DNA from: Yersinia artesiana
Lineage (GTDB): Bacteria > Pseudomonadota > Gammaproteobacteria > Enterobacterales > Enterobacteriaceae
Assembly: GCF_902726545.1 (NCBI RefSeq)
Contig: NZ_CACVAD010000011.1
Span: 1-64,000 of the forward strand
Direction of reading: 5' to 3'
Length of the DNA: 64,000 bases
Position 1 is the stretch's first letter. Every line of letters starts with the position of its first letter. The notes under the pieces are model-generated. The model was not told where the DNA came from, ran no database searches, and saw only the letters and a program-made list of their open reading frames with translations. Shown here piece by piece: positions 33,300 to 39,266 of this stretch. The translations under genes were made by a program, and so were the position numbers.

Positions 33300-35377
33300 T
33301 GGCTAATTTGGCCGCCCTGCTTCGTTTACCGGGCAATTTCAAAGATACGCAGTGGCAAATTCTGGCTGGCCCTATCTTAATCCTCATGATCTTGTCGATG
33401 ATGGTGCTGCCACTGCCGCCTTTCGTCCTTGATTTGCTGTTTACCTTCAACATCGCGCTGTCCATCATGGTATTGCTGGTTGCGATGTTTACTCAGCGCA
33501 CTTTGGATTTTGCGGCATTCCCGACCATTCTGTTGTTCTCCACTTTATTGCGTTTATCCCTAAACGTGGCTTCTACCCGTATCATTTTGATGGATGGACA
33601 CACCGGTGCCGCAGCTGCGGGCCGAGTGGTTGAAGCATTTGGTCATTTCCTGGTGGGCGGTAACTTCGCCATCGGTATCGTGGTCTTTGTTATTTTGGTT
33701 ATCATCAACTTTATGGTCATCACCAAAGGGGCAGGGCGTATTGCCGAAGTTGGCGCACGTTTTGTTCTTGATGGTATGCCCGGTAAACAGATGGCTATCG
33801 ACGCCGACTTAAACGCCGGTTTGATTGGTGAAGACGAAGCGAAAAAGCGCCGCTCAGATGTGACACAAGAAGCGGACTTCTACGGTTCAATGGACGGGGC
33901 CAGTAAGTTTGTTCGGGGTGATGCGGTCGCCGGGTTACTGATCATGGTCATTAACGTGGTCGGCGGCCTGTTAGTGGGGGTGCTTCAGCACAACATGGCC
34001 GTGGGTCATGCTGCCGAAACCTATACGCTGTTGACCATTGGTGATGGTTTGGTTGCGCAAATCCCGGCATTGGTTATCTCCACCGCCGCGGGTGTTATTG
34101 TTACCCGAGTGAGCACGGATCAGGATGTAGGCCAGCAAATGGTCACCCAGTTGTTCAACAACCCACGGGTGATGGTGTTGAGTGCTGCCGTGCTGGGTTT
34201 ACTGGGTATGGTGCCCGGTATGCCTAACTTTGTGTTTCTATTATTTACGGCAGCATTGCTGGCATTAGCCTGGCGTTTGCGCGGTAAGCAATCACAGCAG
34301 CCTGCGGCGGCTGAAACGCCGGTTGTACAGGATCAGCAGCAAGCGTCTGAAGCCACCTGGTCAGATGTGCAACTGGAAGATCCTCTGGGGATGGAAGTCG
34401 GTTACCGCCTAATCCCGATGGTCGATTTCCAGCAAAATGGTGAGTTGCTCGGGCGTATTCGCAGTATCCGCAAAAAGTTTGCTCAGGAAATGGGCTATCT
34501 GCCGCCGGTAGTTCATATCAGGGATAATCTGGAACTCCCGCCTGCGAGTTATCGGATTTTGATGAAAGGGGTCGAGATTGGCAGCGGCGAAGCCCATCCA
34601 GGCCGCTGGCTGGCGATCAATCCAGGTAACGCGGTGGGGACATTGCCCGGCGAAGCCACACAGGATCCAGCCTTTGGTTTGGCTGCGGTATGGATTGAAA
34701 GTGCATTACGTGAACAAGCACAAATTCAAGGGTTTACCGTGGTTGAGGCCAGTACGGTCGTCGCCACGCATTTAAATCATCTGATCAGTCAATATGCGAG
34801 TGAATTGTTCGGCCGTCAGGAAACCCAACAACTGTTGGATAGGGTTTCACAAGAAATGCCGAAGCTGACCGAGGACTTCATTCCCGGTGTAGTGACCTTA
34901 ACCACGCTGCATAAGGTGCTGCAAAACCTGTTAATGGAGCGAGTCTCCATTCGTGATATGCGCACCATTATTGAAACACTTGCTGAACATGCACCCAATC
35001 AAACCGACCCATATGAGTTAACCGCAGTGGTACGTGTTGCGCTGGGTCGCTCAATTGCCCAACAGTGGTTCCCCGGTACTGGCGAAATTCAAGTTATTGG
35101 GCTGGATGCGGCCTTGGAGCGCTTGTTATTACAGGCACTGCAAGGTGGCAGCGGCCTGGAACCGGGGCTGGCTGACCGCCTGTTGGAACAATCCAAACAA
35201 GCACTGCAACGCCAAGAGATGCTGGGCGCTCCGCCGGTGTTGTTGGTTAACCACGCACTGCGGGCATTATTAGCCCGCTTCTTGCGCCGCAGCCTGCCGC
35301 AGATGGTGGTGCTGTCTAATCTGGAGATTGGCGACAATCGCCAAATCCGTATGACCTCAACCATAGGAGCTGCCTGA
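33299..35377 (+). CDS. flhA: Flagellar export gate protein FlhA
   Basis: FlhA (692 residues) forms the nonameric ring of the export gate and energises secretion with the proton gradient. The N-terminal ~320 residues contain about eight membrane helices with the FHIPEP-family signature (AAFPTILLFSTLLRLSLNVASTRIIL) and the cytoplasmic loop GMPGKQMAIDADLNAGLIGEDEAKKRR. The C-terminal ~350 residues form the soluble docking domain for chaperone-substrate complexes. It overlaps flhB by one base and flhE by one base, so the three genes are translationally coupled. The sequence is intact and ordinary for the family. Confidence 0.97.
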   Translation: MANLAALLRLPGNFKDTQWQILAGPILILMILSMMVLPLPPFVLDLLFTFNIALSIMVLLVAMFTQRTLDFAAFPTILLFSTLLRLSLNVASTRIILMDGHTGAAAAGRVVEAFGHFLVGGNFAIGIVVFVILVIINFMVITKGAGRIAEVGARFVLDGMPGKQMAIDADLNAGLIGEDEAKKRRSDVTQEADFYGSMDGASKFVRGDAVAGLLIMVINVVGGLLVGVLQHNMAVGHAAETYTLLTIGDGLVAQIPALVISTAAGVIVTRVSTDQDVGQQMVTQLFNNPRVMVLSAAVLGLLGMVPGMPNFVFLLFTAALLALAWRLRGKQSQQPAAAETPVVQDQQQASEATWSDVQLEDPLGMEVGYRLIPMVDFQQNGELLGRIRSIRKKFAQEMGYLPPVVHIRDNLELPPASYRILMKGVEIGSGEAHPGRWLAINPGNAVGTLPGEATQDPAFGLAAVWIESALREQAQIQGFTVVEASTVVATHLNHLISQYASELFGRQETQQLLDRVSQEMPKLTEDFIPGVVTLTTLHKVLQNLLMERVSIRDMRTIIETLAEHAPNQTDPYELTAVVRVALGRSIAQQWFPGTGEIQVIGLDAALERLLLQALQGGSGLEPGLADRLLEQSKQALQRQEMLGAPPVLLVNHALRALLARFLRRSLPQMVVLSNLEIGDNRQIRMTSTIGAA

Positions 35378-35799
35378 TGCTGACTTGTCTTTCCCGCAGA
35401 GTTTTGGTGGGTTTATTTTCAATCGGAATATTGCCATTAAATGCCATGGCTTCAGGCTCTTGGGTGGCAGACGATATTGGCATTACGCAAAGTGTGCGCG
35501 GTGTGGCAATCTCAGCCAAGCCGCTGCAATCACCGGTTGCACTGGCGCAAGAGAACGCGCGAATTGTCTCGGTAAGTTGGCGCTACCAATTAATGTCGGC
35601 AGCACCAGATGGTTTACAAGTTAAATTATGTACGCCAACCCGCTGTATGCCCCTTGAGGGGGGGAGCGGCCTGAGTCGCGGATTGGCCGGAGAGGCGGCT
35701 GCGACTCAACTGACGTTTATCTACTTTATCGCAGGAAAAGGGCGGGTCAATCCGCCACTGCAAGTGATTAATAACCAGGTCATCGTCAATTATCGCTGA
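35377..35799 (+). CDS. flhE: Flagellar protein FlhE
   Basis: The 140-residue periplasmic protein has an N-terminal signal peptide with cleavage expected after NAMA (before SGSW). In Salmonella FlhE prevents proton leakage through the export gate. The conserved Cys pair of the family is visible in KLCTPTRCMPL. The gene overlaps flhA by one base (TGATG). Its last ten bases overlap, on the opposite strand, the end of the small secreted-peptide ORF at 35790-35939. Confidence 0.93.
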   Translation: MLTCLSRRVLVGLFSIGILPLNAMASGSWVADDIGITQSVRGVAISAKPLQSPVALAQENARIVSVSWRYQLMSAAPDGLQVKLCTPTRCMPLEGGSGLSRGLAGEAAATQLTFIYFIAGKGRVNPPLQVINNQVIVNYR

Positions 35800-35939
35800 A
35801 TCCAAAATGGATAAGTGAAGGCGCAACACACTGGAAGCAACATCATGCTGCTTCGCTCTTTTGCCTGCGCCGTTGAATGTACTGACATCGCCATCACACC
35901 GCAAAAAATCAAACTCAAAAGTACGCTCTGTTTTTTCAT
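35790..35939 (-). CDS. Small secreted-peptide ORF (49 residues) convergent with flhE
   Basis: A perfect AAAGGAGG stands four to six bases before an ATG at 35939. The frame encodes a classic signal peptide (MKKQSVLLSLIFCGVMAMSV then HSTAQA) with Lys-Lys, a hydrophobic core and an A-Q-A cleavage site after residue 26. The predicted mature part is 23 residues (KERSSMMLLPVCC AFTYPFWIQR), with an adjacent Cys-Cys pair and aromatic end. It stops at 35790 inside the 3' end of flhE. I do not recognise a family. It is divergent from inv and shares the AT-rich 35940-36306 region with it. Evidence that it is real: strong Shine-Dalgarno plus a textbook signal sequence. Alternative: the truncated 5' end of a once longer secreted protein. 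Confidence 0.6.
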   Translation of the reverse strand: MKKQSVLLSLIFCGVMAMSVHSTAQAKERSSMMLLPVCCAFTYPFWIQR

Positions 35940-36306
35940 ATAGCCTCCTTTAAACTAAGCCGACGATTGCTTAGTCGCATCAGATTAATGCATTGTGAAA
36001 AATGTAGAGAATCTATTTTATGAATCGAAGATAAGCTATTTTGATAATAAAACTCAGGGTCTATATATTTAGCATAAATATACTTCAATGATTAAATTAA
36101 TTATTGAATATTATCATGCCATCTTATAATTATCTTTCAATAATTCCATTGGTATTTTTTTAATATTTTAATTTGCATTGTGTAAATTCTGCTACTCTAT
36201 TATTGCTGCTTGTGAAATCGGCTGTGGATTCTTTTTTATTACTGTTTATTATCGTAACTCTTTAAGTAAATATTGCTGCGTTAGCTCATGCCAAAGGAGT
36301 GCATTA
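35940..36306. promoter_or_regulatory. AT-rich divergent control region of inv and the small peptide gene
   Basis: This ~370-base AT-rich stretch separates inv from the divergent small ORF. In Y. enterocolitica the inv promoter is controlled by RovA against H-NS silencing; the high AT content here is compatible with that, but I cannot point to defined sites. The reading frame of inv stays open back to 36178, though without a ribosome binding site. Confidence 0.5.
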
Positions 36307-38820
36307 ATGTATTCATTTTTTAATACGCTAACTGTGACTAAAATTATTGCCAGGTTAATATTATCGGCTGGTTTAATATTGGGCACATTTACCTCTGGGG
36401 GCTCACAGCAACATTATTTTAATTCAGACGAGTTAGATAATCCTGCTGACCACAATGAAACCATCAATAAGATGATCAATGCCGGAACCAGTCTGGCGGC
36501 GTCGGGTAATGCATCTAATATTACCAGATCAATGGTAAATGACGCGGCAAATCAGGAAATAAAGCATTGGTTAAATAGGTTCGGGACGACGCAAGTCAAT
36601 GTTAATTTTGACAAAAAATTCTCCCTCAAAGAAAGTTCTCTCGACTGGCTGTTGCCTTGGTATGACTCTGCTTCATATATCTTTTTTAGTCAGTTGGGTA
36701 TAAGAAATAAAGACAGCCGCAATACCCTTAATATCGGTGCTGGGGTGCGTACTTTCCAACAAAATTGGATGTATGGTTTTAACACTTTCTATGACAATGA
36801 TATGACCGGGCACAATCATCGTCTTGGCGTGGGTGCAGAAGCCTGGACTGATTATTTACAGTTATCGGCTAATGGTTATTTTCGTCTCAATGGGTGGCAT
36901 CAATCTCGTGATTTCGTTGACTATAATGAGCGCCCGGCAAGCGGAGGTGATATTCACGCCAAAGCGTATCTACCTACACTTCCTCAGTTGGGTGGGAAGT
37001 TAAAATATGAGCAATACCGTGGTGAGCGGGTGGCTTTATTTGGCAAAGATAACCTGCAAAATAACCCTTATGCGGTGACCGCAGGGCTTATTTATACGCC
37101 GATCCCTTTCATTACCCTCGGCGTTGATCAACGAATGGGAAAAAGTCGGAAACATGAAACACAATGGAACTTACAAATGGATTATCGACTGGGAGAAAGT
37201 TTCCGTTCGCAGTTTAGCCCCGCAGTGGTGGCCGGAACCCGGTTACTGGCCGAGAGCCGTTATAATCTGGTTGAACGCAATCCGAATATTGTTCTGGAAT
37301 ACCAAAAACAGAATACGTTCAAATTAGCCTTCTCCCCCGCGGTGCTTTCCGGTTTGCCGGGGCAGGTCTTTTCCGTTGGTGCACAAATACAGTCTAAATC
37401 TGCCCTGCAACGCATTCTCTGGGATGATGCGCAATGGGTTGCGGCCGGCGGTAAATTAATACCCGTCAGTGCCACACAGTACAATGTGGTATTGCCACCT
37501 TATAGACGTATCGCGGCAGCGAGCCGGACTGTCGGGACAACCGACGTGAATGAACCGGCGGTCAACACCTATACCCTCAGCGCCACGGCCATCGATAACC
37601 GCGGCAATAGCTCTAATCCCTCAACATTGACCGTTATTGTGCAGCAACCTCAGTTTAATATCACCTCGAAGGTGACTAATGATGGTGCGCTTGCTGATGG
37701 CAGCGCCGCCATCACGGTGGCATTTACGGTGACGGATAGTGATGGTGCGCCGGTTGTCGGGCAAGAGGGGGTGGTAACCACCAGTAATGGTGCGCTTCCC
37801 AGTAAAGTCACGGAAAAAACCGATGCGCAAGGTATGATAAGCATTGCATTAACTAATACCTCTGCTGGTGTGTCAGTGGTCACGTTAGACACTGAAGGGC
37901 AACAGTCTGGCGTTGATGTGCAGTTCGCCATGCTGCCGCCAGATGCCACAAAATCCAGTTTTAACGTTTCCACAGCTGATATTGTTGCCGATGGCTCCAT
38001 GCAGTCGCAACTGACGTTTGTTCCGCGTAATAAAAATAATGAGTTTATCAGTGGGCTAACAGATCTTGAATTTATGCAAAGTGGTACGCCTGTCACTATC
38101 AGTGCGTTCACTGAAAATACTGATAACTATACCGCCAGTGTGGTGGGGAATAATGTTGGAGATGTCGATATCACGCCACAGGTGGGTGGGGTGCCATTTA
38201 GCTCGTTACAGGAAAAAATCACTCTGTATCCAGTACCGCAGATAACCGGTATTCAGGTGAACGGTGAGCAATTCGCCACAGATACAAGTTTCCCGAAAAC
38301 CATCTTTAGTAATGCTACGTTCCAGTTGGTAATGAATAATAATGTGACGAATAATACTCAGTATGAATGGACGTCATCCTTTGCGGGCAATGTGCCGGTT
38401 GATAGTCAGGGTAAGGTCAAGATTACCTATAAAACTTATGGCAACACCGTCACTGTGAGCGCCAAAAGTAAAAAATTCCCGACTTATACGGCAACCTATC
38501 AATTCAAACCTAATTTGTGGGTCTCCTTAGAGAGCAGTTCACCGATGGAAAGTTTAGCGGCAAGTAGAGAGTGCCAGCAGCTTGGTGATTTAGTCACGCT
38601 GATTGAGTCGTCGCGCGCCACCAATGGCTCGCGATCGCCAGACGGCACTTTATGGGGAGAGTGGGGGAATTTGACTAACTATGATAGTGCTAACTGGCCA
38701 GCAGGCAATTATTGGACTAAAAAGACCAGCACAGTATTTGTCGCTATGAATATGGCTAGCGGTGCATTGCAGGGGACATCGGTGTCACAGGCGTATCCCC
38801 TCTGTGCGCAGCCGCAATAG
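36307..38820 (+). CDS. inv: Invasin (inverse autotransporter adhesin)
   Basis: Invasin is an outer-membrane adhesin that binds beta-1 integrins and drives uptake into M cells and epithelial cells. The 837-residue protein has a signal region (residues ~1-35), an inverse-autotransporter beta-barrel (~90-400; GVGAEAWTDYLQLSANGYFRL, YEQYRGERVALFGKDNLQ), and Ig-like passenger domains (~450-740). The tip is a C-type-lectin-like domain with Cys residues near both ends (REC and PLCAQPQ) for its disulfide. The start at 36307 (MYSFFNTLTV) is fixed by AAAGGAG and by the known Inv N-terminus. Length is close to the 835 of Y. enterocolitica Inv; many substitutions suggest a related species or lineage. It is intact, and lies between flhE and flgN. 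Confidence 0.95.
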   Translation: MYSFFNTLTVTKIIARLILSAGLILGTFTSGGSQQHYFNSDELDNPADHNETINKMINAGTSLAASGNASNITRSMVNDAANQEIKHWLNRFGTTQVNVNFDKKFSLKESSLDWLLPWYDSASYIFFSQLGIRNKDSRNTLNIGAGVRTFQQNWMYGFNTFYDNDMTGHNHRLGVGAEAWTDYLQLSANGYFRLNGWHQSRDFVDYNERPASGGDIHAKAYLPTLPQLGGKLKYEQYRGERVALFGKDNLQNNPYAVTAGLIYTPIPFITLGVDQRMGKSRKHETQWNLQMDYRLGESFRSQFSPAVVAGTRLLAESRYNLVERNPNIVLEYQKQNTFKLAFSPAVLSGLPGQVFSVGAQIQSKSALQRILWDDAQWVAAGGKLIPVSATQYNVVLPPYRRIAAASRTVGTTDVNEPAVNTYTLSATAIDNRGNSSNPSTLTVIVQQPQFNITSKVTNDGALADGSAAITVAFTVTDSDGAPVVGQEGVVTTSNGALPSKVTEKTDAQGMISIALTNTSAGVSVVTLDTEGQQSGVDVQFAMLPPDATKSSFNVSTADIVADGSMQSQLTFVPRNKNNEFISGLTDLEFMQSGTPVTISAFTENTDNYTASVVGNNVGDVDITPQVGGVPFSSLQEKITLYPVPQITGIQVNGEQFATDTSFPKTIFSNATFQLVMNNNVTNNTQYEWTSSFAGNVPVDSQGKVKITYKTYGNTVTVSAKSKKFPTYTATYQFKPNLWVSLESSSPMESLAASRECQQLGDLVTLIESSRATNGSRSPDGTLWGEWGNLTNYDSANWPAGNYWTKKTSTVFVAMNMASGALQGTSVSQAYPLCAQPQ

Positions 38821-38822
38821 TG

Positions 38823-39266
38823 CTAAATACCAATCTTGCGGCCCAGTAAACTGGCTCCTTTGGAGTGACCATCTGGCCCGTAGAGGGATTGGCCGTGACG
38901 TGTATTCAAAACCGCCAGAGCTTGAGTGTTATGCTCGATATGCTGTTGCAGCAAAAGCCCGTTATGCAGGTTGCCGTAGCGCAGGCTTTCGGCCAGTTCC
39001 AAAATACGCTGCCAGCGCTCCGCCAGCGCAGTGATGCTGCTGTAGGGCGCTTGAATATTGGTGGCTTTTTCGGTGGTGAGCCGGGTCTGATCCAGATAAG
39101 CCAAGGTCGCCAAAATTGAACTTTTTTGTTCAGTGACGCCTTGCAGCACGATACCTTGAATCCGGCCGGAGCACAGCAGTTGCTGCTCTTGTGCTACTAC
39201 GGTTTTCAGGGATTCAAGCAGTTCCAGTTGCTGGTCCAGATTGGTTTGTAATCTTTCCACCACCAC
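38823..39266 (-). CDS. flgN: Flagellar export chaperone FlgN
   Basis: FlgN is the cytoplasmic chaperone for hook-filament junction proteins FlgK and FlgL, both encoded in this window, and delivers them to FlhA. The 147-residue product is helical (QEQQLLCSGRIQGIVLQGVTEQKSSILATLAYLDQ) and ends in an amphipathic segment with SLYGPDGHSKGASLLGRKIGI, as in the family. The start is one of three tandem GTG codons (39266 or the next two) behind AAGGAT. It follows flgM by 45 bases in the flgMN unit and ends two bases from the inv stop, with no visible terminator between them. Confidence 0.93.
   Translation of the reverse strand: MVVERLQTNLDQQLELLESLKTVVAQEQQLLCSGRIQGIVLQGVTEQKSSILATLAYLDQTRLTTEKATNIQAPYSSITALAERWQRILELAESLRYGNLHNGLLLQQHIEHNTQALAVLNTRHGQSLYGPDGHSKGASLLGRKIGI

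What the first reader, a model, noticed from the sequence alone, without database searches (positions are those of the whole stretch)
35790..35939. Unannotated-type 49-residue secreted peptide gene divergent from inv
AAAGGAGG, ATG, a textbook signal peptide ending A-Q-A, and a 23-residue mature peptide with Cys-Cys and aromatic residues lie on the minus strand between flhE and inv. Too short for usual gene calling. It shares the inv control region and overlaps flhE by ten bases at the stop. It could be a secreted or membrane-active peptide co-regulated with invasin, or the stub of a lost larger gene.
Basis: partly seen in the sequence, partly recalled or inferred. Interest (0 to 1): 0.7.

Follow-up and report, generated by a model that had tools for sequence, protein, structure and literature searches.

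The report
Conserved Yersinia small secreted protein gene
A 49-residue exported protein gene beside flagellar gene flhE is real: most Yersinia species looked at keep it, with a folded RNA hairpin at the start of its message, and it is not tied to the neighbouring invasin gene; what the protein does is still unknown.

Summary
Window 35790-35939 (-) encodes 49 residues with a strong ribosome site and an export signal ending A-Q-A. The frame lies at the same place, convergent with flhE, in 21 of 25 Yersinia genomes. It is under purifying selection (pooled pN/pS 0.30, 18 close pairs). Its mature part has exactly two cysteines in 21 of 21: CxxC in 18, CC in the window and two kin. A 7-bp leader hairpin sits just before the ribosome site: 147 of 147 cells pair, with 19 G-T and 0 A-C cells and a loop of 6-8 nt, the mark of an RNA made from the minus strand. 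The tie to invasin fails: inv begins beside it in only 6 of 21 genomes, one has an inv relic, in 14 flgN follows directly, and Y. similis has inv without the peptide. No relative was found in the non-Yersinia genomes sampled and no convincing known family. Most likely it is a genus-specific periplasmic two-cysteine small protein with a structured leader; expression was not seen and its molecular role is inferred only.

The parts
35790..35939 (-). Small protein gene, 49 aa; residues 1-26 export signal (A-Q-A), residues 27-49 mature part with Cys38-Cys39, Pro44, Trp46
   Evidence: same-site frame in 21 of 25 Yersinia genomes; pN/pS 0.30. Cleavage after residue 26 is inferred from the A-x-A pattern; no signal-peptide program was available.
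35944..35951 (-). Ribosome binding site AAAGGAGG, ending four bases before the ATG
   Evidence: several of its columns are nearly invariant in leader alignment A2.
35954..35975 (-). Leader RNA hairpin: 7-bp stem ACTAAGC / GCTTAGT, 8-nt loop
   Evidence: 147 of 147 cells paired, 4 of 7 pairs with changes on both sides; 19 G-T, 0 A-C cells, loop 6-8 nt; one strong model hit in each of 21 of 25 genomes (the 21 that built the model).
35982..35987 (-). Conserved -10-like hexamer TAATCT, 6 bases before the hairpin (putative promoter)
   Evidence: TANTCT in 18 of 21 rows, read from the rows. No consensus sigma-70 or sigma-28 site stands out over shuffles, so this is weak.
35377..35799 (+). flhE, convergent neighbour; overlaps the peptide gene by 10 bases
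Evidence: the anchor used to compare genomes.
36307..38820 (+). inv (837 aa), divergent neighbour; variable occupant of the site, beginning there in 6 of 21 genomes with the peptide
   Evidence: Name recalled.
38823..39266 (-). flgN, same strand as the peptide gene and its direct upstream neighbour in 14 of 21 genomes
   Evidence: Name recalled.

Best explanation
It is a genuine, Yersinia-specific gene for a small exported protein, probably with its own transcription unit, at the flhE-flgN junction. Shown: a conserved coding frame, a conserved two-cysteine tail, and a conserved RNA hairpin in the leader of the minus strand. Inferred: the message starts at or just before the hairpin. The 5' hairpin protects the message from decay or tunes its translation while leaving the ribosome site open. 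The protein is exported by Sec and cut after A-x-A, leaving a mature peptide of about 20-25 residues in most species in the periplasm or on the outer face of the inner membrane. There its two cysteines form a disulfide or bind a metal, and its P-x-W tail rests on the membrane or on an envelope partner. inv is a coming-and-going neighbour, not its partner.
For: Same-site frame in 21 of 25 genomes; pN/pS 0.30 pooled over 18 close pairs from 19 of the 21 sequences, pairwise dN/dS 0.07-0.48, differences by codon position 114/83/211; invariant M1, L7, C38, P44; [AV]-[QR]-A before the mature part in 18 of 21 rows (read); exactly two Cys after residue 26 in 21 of 21; leader hairpin 147 of 147 cells paired, 0 of 500 shuffles as good on pairing or covariation score, 19 G-T against 0 A-C, found once per genome by model R1; site occupancy by inv varies among close species.
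Against: No transcript, ribosome or peptide data were seen; the Y. enterocolitica transcriptome paper PMC6478967 does not name flhE or flgN in its main text (passages only) and its data sets were out of reach. The gene was not found in 4 of 25 genomes (G008, G016, G021, Y. similis), so it is dispensable. On one of the five measures (further pair types) the hairpin does not exceed shuffles (97 of 500 as high). The message from the hairpin's 3' arm to the stop folds no better than shuffles (z -0.63, 52 of 200 as good). A fold prediction from 9 rows is poor (mean pLDDT 63, pTM 0.30, two helices), so disulfide, metal or membrane contact are guesses. No promoter consensus stands out.
Confidence: 0.68

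Rival explanations
1. Uncut membrane-anchored small protein: residues 5-26 stay as one transmembrane helix with a short periplasmic tail, acting on an inner-membrane partner, as many known small proteins under 50 aa do (recalled).
For: Length and one hydrophobic stretch; predicted helix 2-29 (low confidence); the A-x-A site is altered in 3 of 21 rows (L009, L015, L020).
Against: [AV]-[QR]-A at the expected place in 18 of 21 rows (read).
Confidence: 0.22
2. Small peptide toxic to its own cell, of the type I toxin kind, held down by its leader RNA.
For: Small, hydrophobic, structured leader; absent from some species; one promoter-like site on the other strand inside the gene (35882-35909, 9 of 12 matches).
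Against: No toxin family of this kind among the Pfam hits of 21 members at E up to 1; no second match under E 0.1 in a Yersinia genome with the peptide as query, though the profile gives three weak further places in the window's genome (E 0.019-0.098); the consensus fold leaves the ribosome site unpaired; promoter-like sites in the region are near the chance number (5 against 3.1, sd 1.6).
Confidence: 0.08
3. Secreted peptide aimed at other cells or at the host, co-regulated with invasin.
For: Export signal; shares the 367-bp gap with inv in the window.
Against: inv begins beside it in 6 of 21 genomes only; 14 of 21 have flgN there; Y. similis has inv and no peptide; the direct neighbours are flhE and inv or flgN, not an export, processing or immunity gene.
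Confidence: 0.06
4. Chance frame or stub of a lost gene.
For: In one genome alone the frame is only mildly unusual (0.17 expected per shuffled window).
Against:: site, protein and leader all conserved across most of the genus sample.
Confidence: 0.02

Closest known systems
Small exported or membrane proteins under about 50 aa of enteric bacteria (general class, recalled)
   Same: Size, strong ribosome site, one hydrophobic N-terminal stretch, easily missed by gene calling
   Different: No convincing relative in NCBIfam (best E 0.0019, one of 21 members), Pfam (0.041), PHROGs (0.012) or PDB (0.98); two-cysteine P-x-W tail and covarying leader hairpin
5'-terminal stabilising hairpins of enterobacterial mRNAs, as in ompA (recalled)
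   Same: A short perfect stem in the leader, close to the presumed 5' end, leaving the ribosome site free
   Different: No Rfam match at E up to 1; 5' end not mapped; no other convincing site of the model in 25 genomes
Heat-stable enterotoxin type small secreted peptides of Yersinia
   Same: Small, exported, cysteine-bearing (recalled)
   Different: Those carry six cysteines in the mature end (recalled); this has two in 21 of 21
sORF-encoded peptides mapped in Y. pestis (PMC8563848; search listing, start of abstract and two passages seen)
   Same: Small proteins missed by annotation
   Different: flhE, flgN and invasin do not occur in its main text, so nothing seen ties any of its peptides to this site

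Membership tests
Sec-exported small protein | Positive N-terminus, hydrophobic core, A-x-A-like cut site | tested here: met
   Crude rule met for the window peptide; [AV]-[QR]-A in 18 of 21 rows of A1, by eye. No SignalP available.
Sec-exported small protein | Protein is exported and cut | not testable with these tools
   Needs mass spectrometry or a reporter fusion.
Lipoprotein | Conserved lipobox with cysteine at the cut site | tested here: not met
   Cys13 lies inside the hydrophobic core and is V, F or G in some rows of A1.
Heat-stable enterotoxin | Six cysteines in the mature end (recalled) | tested here: not met
   Two in 21 of 21.
Type I toxin (Hok, Ldr, TisB kinds; recalled) | Sequence match to a toxin family | tested here: not met
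   None among the 8 families hit by 21 members at E up to 1 in Pfam.
Type I toxin (Hok, Ldr, TisB kinds; recalled) | Growth arrest on expression | not testable with these tools
   Bench test.
Flagellar regulon member | FliA (sigma-28) promoter upstream (consensus recalled) | tested here: not met
   Mean best score 9.5 against 9.6 in shuffles over 21 upstream regions.
inv-linked gene | Occurs with inv | tested here: not met
   inv begins at the site in 6 of 21 holders and in Y. similis, a non-holder.
Structured mRNA leader | Compensatory changes and strand-specific G-U pairs | tested here: met

The most novel reading that the evidence does not exclude
A genus-specific exported two-cysteine peptide, made from the flhE-flgN junction under control of its own leader hairpin, acts on the flagellar export gate or basal body from the periplasmic side, in partnership with FlhE. 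It would be a small envelope factor by which Yersinia ties motility to envelope redox or metal state.
Probability: 0.08. Interest if true: 0.7.

Novelty: new member of a known kind. Interest (0 to 1): 0.45.

Why it matters
It adds a new, testable small-protein family next to a much-studied virulence gene. The inv control region in the window is also the upstream region of another conserved gene, so deletions or insertions there may affect both. It also shows that the inv site is a changeable slot between flgN and this gene.

Tried and rejected
Rejected: a special link to inv; stub of a larger gene; a relative on plasmids or phages (no match at E up to 1); a relative elsewhere in the order (of 394 genomes drawn, 3 Yersinia and one chance-like hit at E 8.7e-4 inside a 349-residue frame); a remnant in Y. 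similis (best hit 28.3 bits, against a shuffled maximum of 27.4, and not at the matching place; the similarity at the gene's 3' end is 24.7 bits), so the gene is called absent there, not broken. The sigma-28 and sigma-70 consensus scans led nowhere, as did Rfam, the fold of the message without its hairpin's first arm and the fold prediction. Eight paper searches found nothing about this gene in the titles and abstract starts listed; one search gave 0 papers, one search listed 20 of 33, one search listed 12 of 16,326. Any claim of novelty rests on these searches of open papers only, and whether RefSeq annotates the frame as a hypothetical protein could not be checked.

Errors of mine: one search read loci on the contig strand instead of the flhE strand (redone); one search used an inv query out of frame by one base (redone); one search stopped on a label clash (redone); one search used guessed coordinates and is not used.

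Full report
Observation. The minus strand of 35790-35939 reads as 49 residues from ATG to TAA, with AAAGGAGG ending four bases before the ATG, a positively charged start, a hydrophobic core and A-Q-A at 24-26. The frame's last ten bases overlap the end of flhE. In the window, of 459 ATG-started readings of 30-80 aa, 7 have a ribosome site, 8 an export signal by a crude rule, and only this one has both; 30 Markov-shuffled windows give 0.17 on average, maximum 1. That alone would be a hint.

Conservation. flhE was found in 25 of 25 genomes of the genus. Reading the strand opposite flhE just past its stop gives a frame of 47-66 aa with the same layout in 21 of 25. A search with the window peptide alone reached 19 of these at the site, at E up to 0.016, and the profile of the 21 matched 21 of 25, all below E 1e-20, as it must since it was built from them. 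Alignment A1 has invariant M1, L7, C38 and P44. All 21 have exactly two cysteines after residue 26: C-x-x-C in 18 and C-C in the window, G006 and Y. proxima. Species names come and were tied to genome handles by equal contig lengths. Within seven close groups (19 of the 21 sequences, 18 pairs; G024 and G020 have no close partner and were left out) pooled pN/pS is 0.30, 0.30 for the signal part and 0.31 for the mature part, pairwise dN/dS 0.07-0.48, and differences fall 114, 83 and 211 on codon positions 1, 2 and 3. Pairs share branches, so these counts are not independent.

The leader. The 53 bases around the ribosome site align in all 21. A stem of seven pairs, ACTAAGC with GCTTAGT, ends two bases before AAAGGAGG in the window. 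All 147 cells pair; four of seven pairs show changes on both sides (5 of 500 shuffles reach four); covariation score 0.401 against 0.295 in shuffles, 0 of 500 as high; further pair types 10 against 8.8, reached by 97 of 500, so that measure says nothing; sliding the partner by 1-3 columns drops pairing to 53.1% or less. Thirteen different stems occur; the non-Watson-Crick cells are 19 G-T and 0 A-C. A palindromic protein site in DNA should not favour G-T over A-C, and its spacing should be fixed, whereas here the loop is 6, 7 or 8 nt. Hence an RNA made from the peptide's strand is what seems to be conserved. Sequences are related, so 19 cells are fewer events. A covariance model of the leader hits this one place in 21 of 25 genomes (those it was built from) and gives two further matches near E = 1 only (150 of 1,237-1,783 first-look candidates per genome were scored). 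Rfam has no match. A hexamer TANTCT lies before the stem in 18 of 21 rows (read), six bases away in the window; if it is a -10 element the message starts about at the stem, which would fit a 5'-protecting hairpin. Neither sigma-70 (7.7 against 8.2) nor sigma-28 (9.5 against 9.6) consensus scores exceed shuffles, so this is inference.

Neighbours. inv begins at the site in 6 of the 21 genomes with the peptide (window, G006, Y. proxima, Y. alsatica, Y. thracica, Y. pekkanenii); G005 has only a weak match to the end of inv beside flgN; 14 have flgN next, on the peptide's strand, with 182-234 bases between. inv is full length in the window and in the four named species, whose loci reach its end; for G006 only the start was seen. 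Y. similis has inv and no peptide; G008, G016 and G021 have neither at the site and form one clade (100/100) on one side of a midpoint-rooted tree of flhA-flhE DNA; the root is for drawing only, so gain or loss there is open. Close species differ in inv (tree, inv): alsatica with, frederiksenii without; thracica with, G019 and G012 without; pekkanenii with, G007 and G011 without. In these three kinds of pair (one each) and the G005/G010 pair, identity upstream of the ATG is 63-100% at 0-30 nt, 80-87% at 30-60, 53-60% at 60-90, 33-43% at 90-120 and 20-43% at 120-150; three like-with-like pairs show 93-97% at 60-90, 67-90% at 90-120 and 62-93% at 120-150. So the inv-bearing and inv-less forms of the junction change over just upstream of the peptide's leader. 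Which state is older was not settled.

Outside Yersinia. With the profile, 0 of 35 non-Yersinia relatives matched at E 0.01. Of 198 genomes drawn from the GTDB family, 26 matched at E 0.1: 3 Yersinia, and 23 others with E of 0.0034 or worse, 18 of them inside frames of 100 codons or more; none of the 23 lies beside an flhE match of its genome. Of 394 genomes drawn from the order, 3 Yersinia and one weak hit matched at E 0.001. In both draws only part of the first-look candidates was scored. In 20 non-Yersinia genomes (20 of the 22 best flhE matches, of 99 non-Yersinia genomes with a match) the frames listed within 500 bases past flhE held no such peptide by eye. In known families the 21 members gave best E-values of 0.0019 in NCBIfam (one member, a conjugation protein model), 0.041 in Pfam, 0.012 in PHROGs and, as a profile, 0.98 in PDB, none convincing. 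There was no match in 72,556 plasmid and 50,697 phage records.

Mechanism. Shown: coding, conserved cysteines, conserved leader RNA. From general knowledge: Sec export and A-x-A cutting; 5' hairpins protect messages. Inferred: a periplasmic or membrane-edge peptide with a disulfide or a metal site. The fold prediction (9 rows; mean pLDDT 63, pTM 0.30; helices 2-29 and 35-47) does not decide.

Literature. PMC6478967 (search listing and passages found by terms) maps transcription starts and 262 and 486 noncoding RNAs in two Y. enterocolitica strains; its main text names neither flhE nor flgN, and its data sets were not read. It reports an IS1667 element in the invA promoter of O:3 strains; by inference that lies between inv and the place where this gene would be, and any effect on the peptide is unknown. 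PMC8563848 (listing and two passages) concerns Y. pestis and does not mention this site in its main text.

Verdict. A real, conserved small exported protein gene, found only in Yersinia here, with a structured leader; not an invasin companion; function open.

Noticed in passing
14 inv-less genomes among L005-L022, about 280-340 bases past the flhE stop, between flgN and the peptide gene (e.g. L009:2205-2251:-): A second long conserved hairpin just downstream of flgN: 16 pairs, 92.4% of 224 cells paired, 10 pairs with changes on both sides, 0 of 500 shuffles as high on covariation score, though 90 of 500 on further pair types. The stretches were picked by eye from folds, which favours pairing. 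It is not seen in the 220 nt upstream of the gene in inv-bearing genomes. Perhaps the 3' end of the flgMN message.
   Followed up: partly
Junction flgN to peptide gene; window 36000-38820: inv-bearing and inv-less forms alternate between close species and change over about 60 nt upstream of the peptide ATG, as if the inv segment were swapped in and out as a block.
   Followed up: partly
L004 (G005), about 498-707 past the flhE stop: Weak match to the last 124 residues of inv next to flgN (31% identity, E 5.5e-8): a likely relic of a lost inv.
   Followed up: no
L108, L109, L110, L112 (genomes G049, G193, G056, G040): In these four non-Yersinia genomes the stretch next to flhE holds a helix-turn-helix-like frame of 100-107 aa, in three of the four with a frame before it, resembling a toxin-antitoxin pair (by eye, no family search): the junction seems to be a slot for varied inserts.
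   Followed up: no
G000 C54 27246-27629 (L029): A second FlhE-like gene (37% identity) in the window's genome; 6 of the other 24 Yersinia genomes also have a second match, which may mean a second flagellar cluster.
   Followed up: no
L018:1903-2100 (Y. vastinensis): The peptide runs on to 66 residues, a C-terminal extension not seen in the other 20 copies.
   Followed up: no
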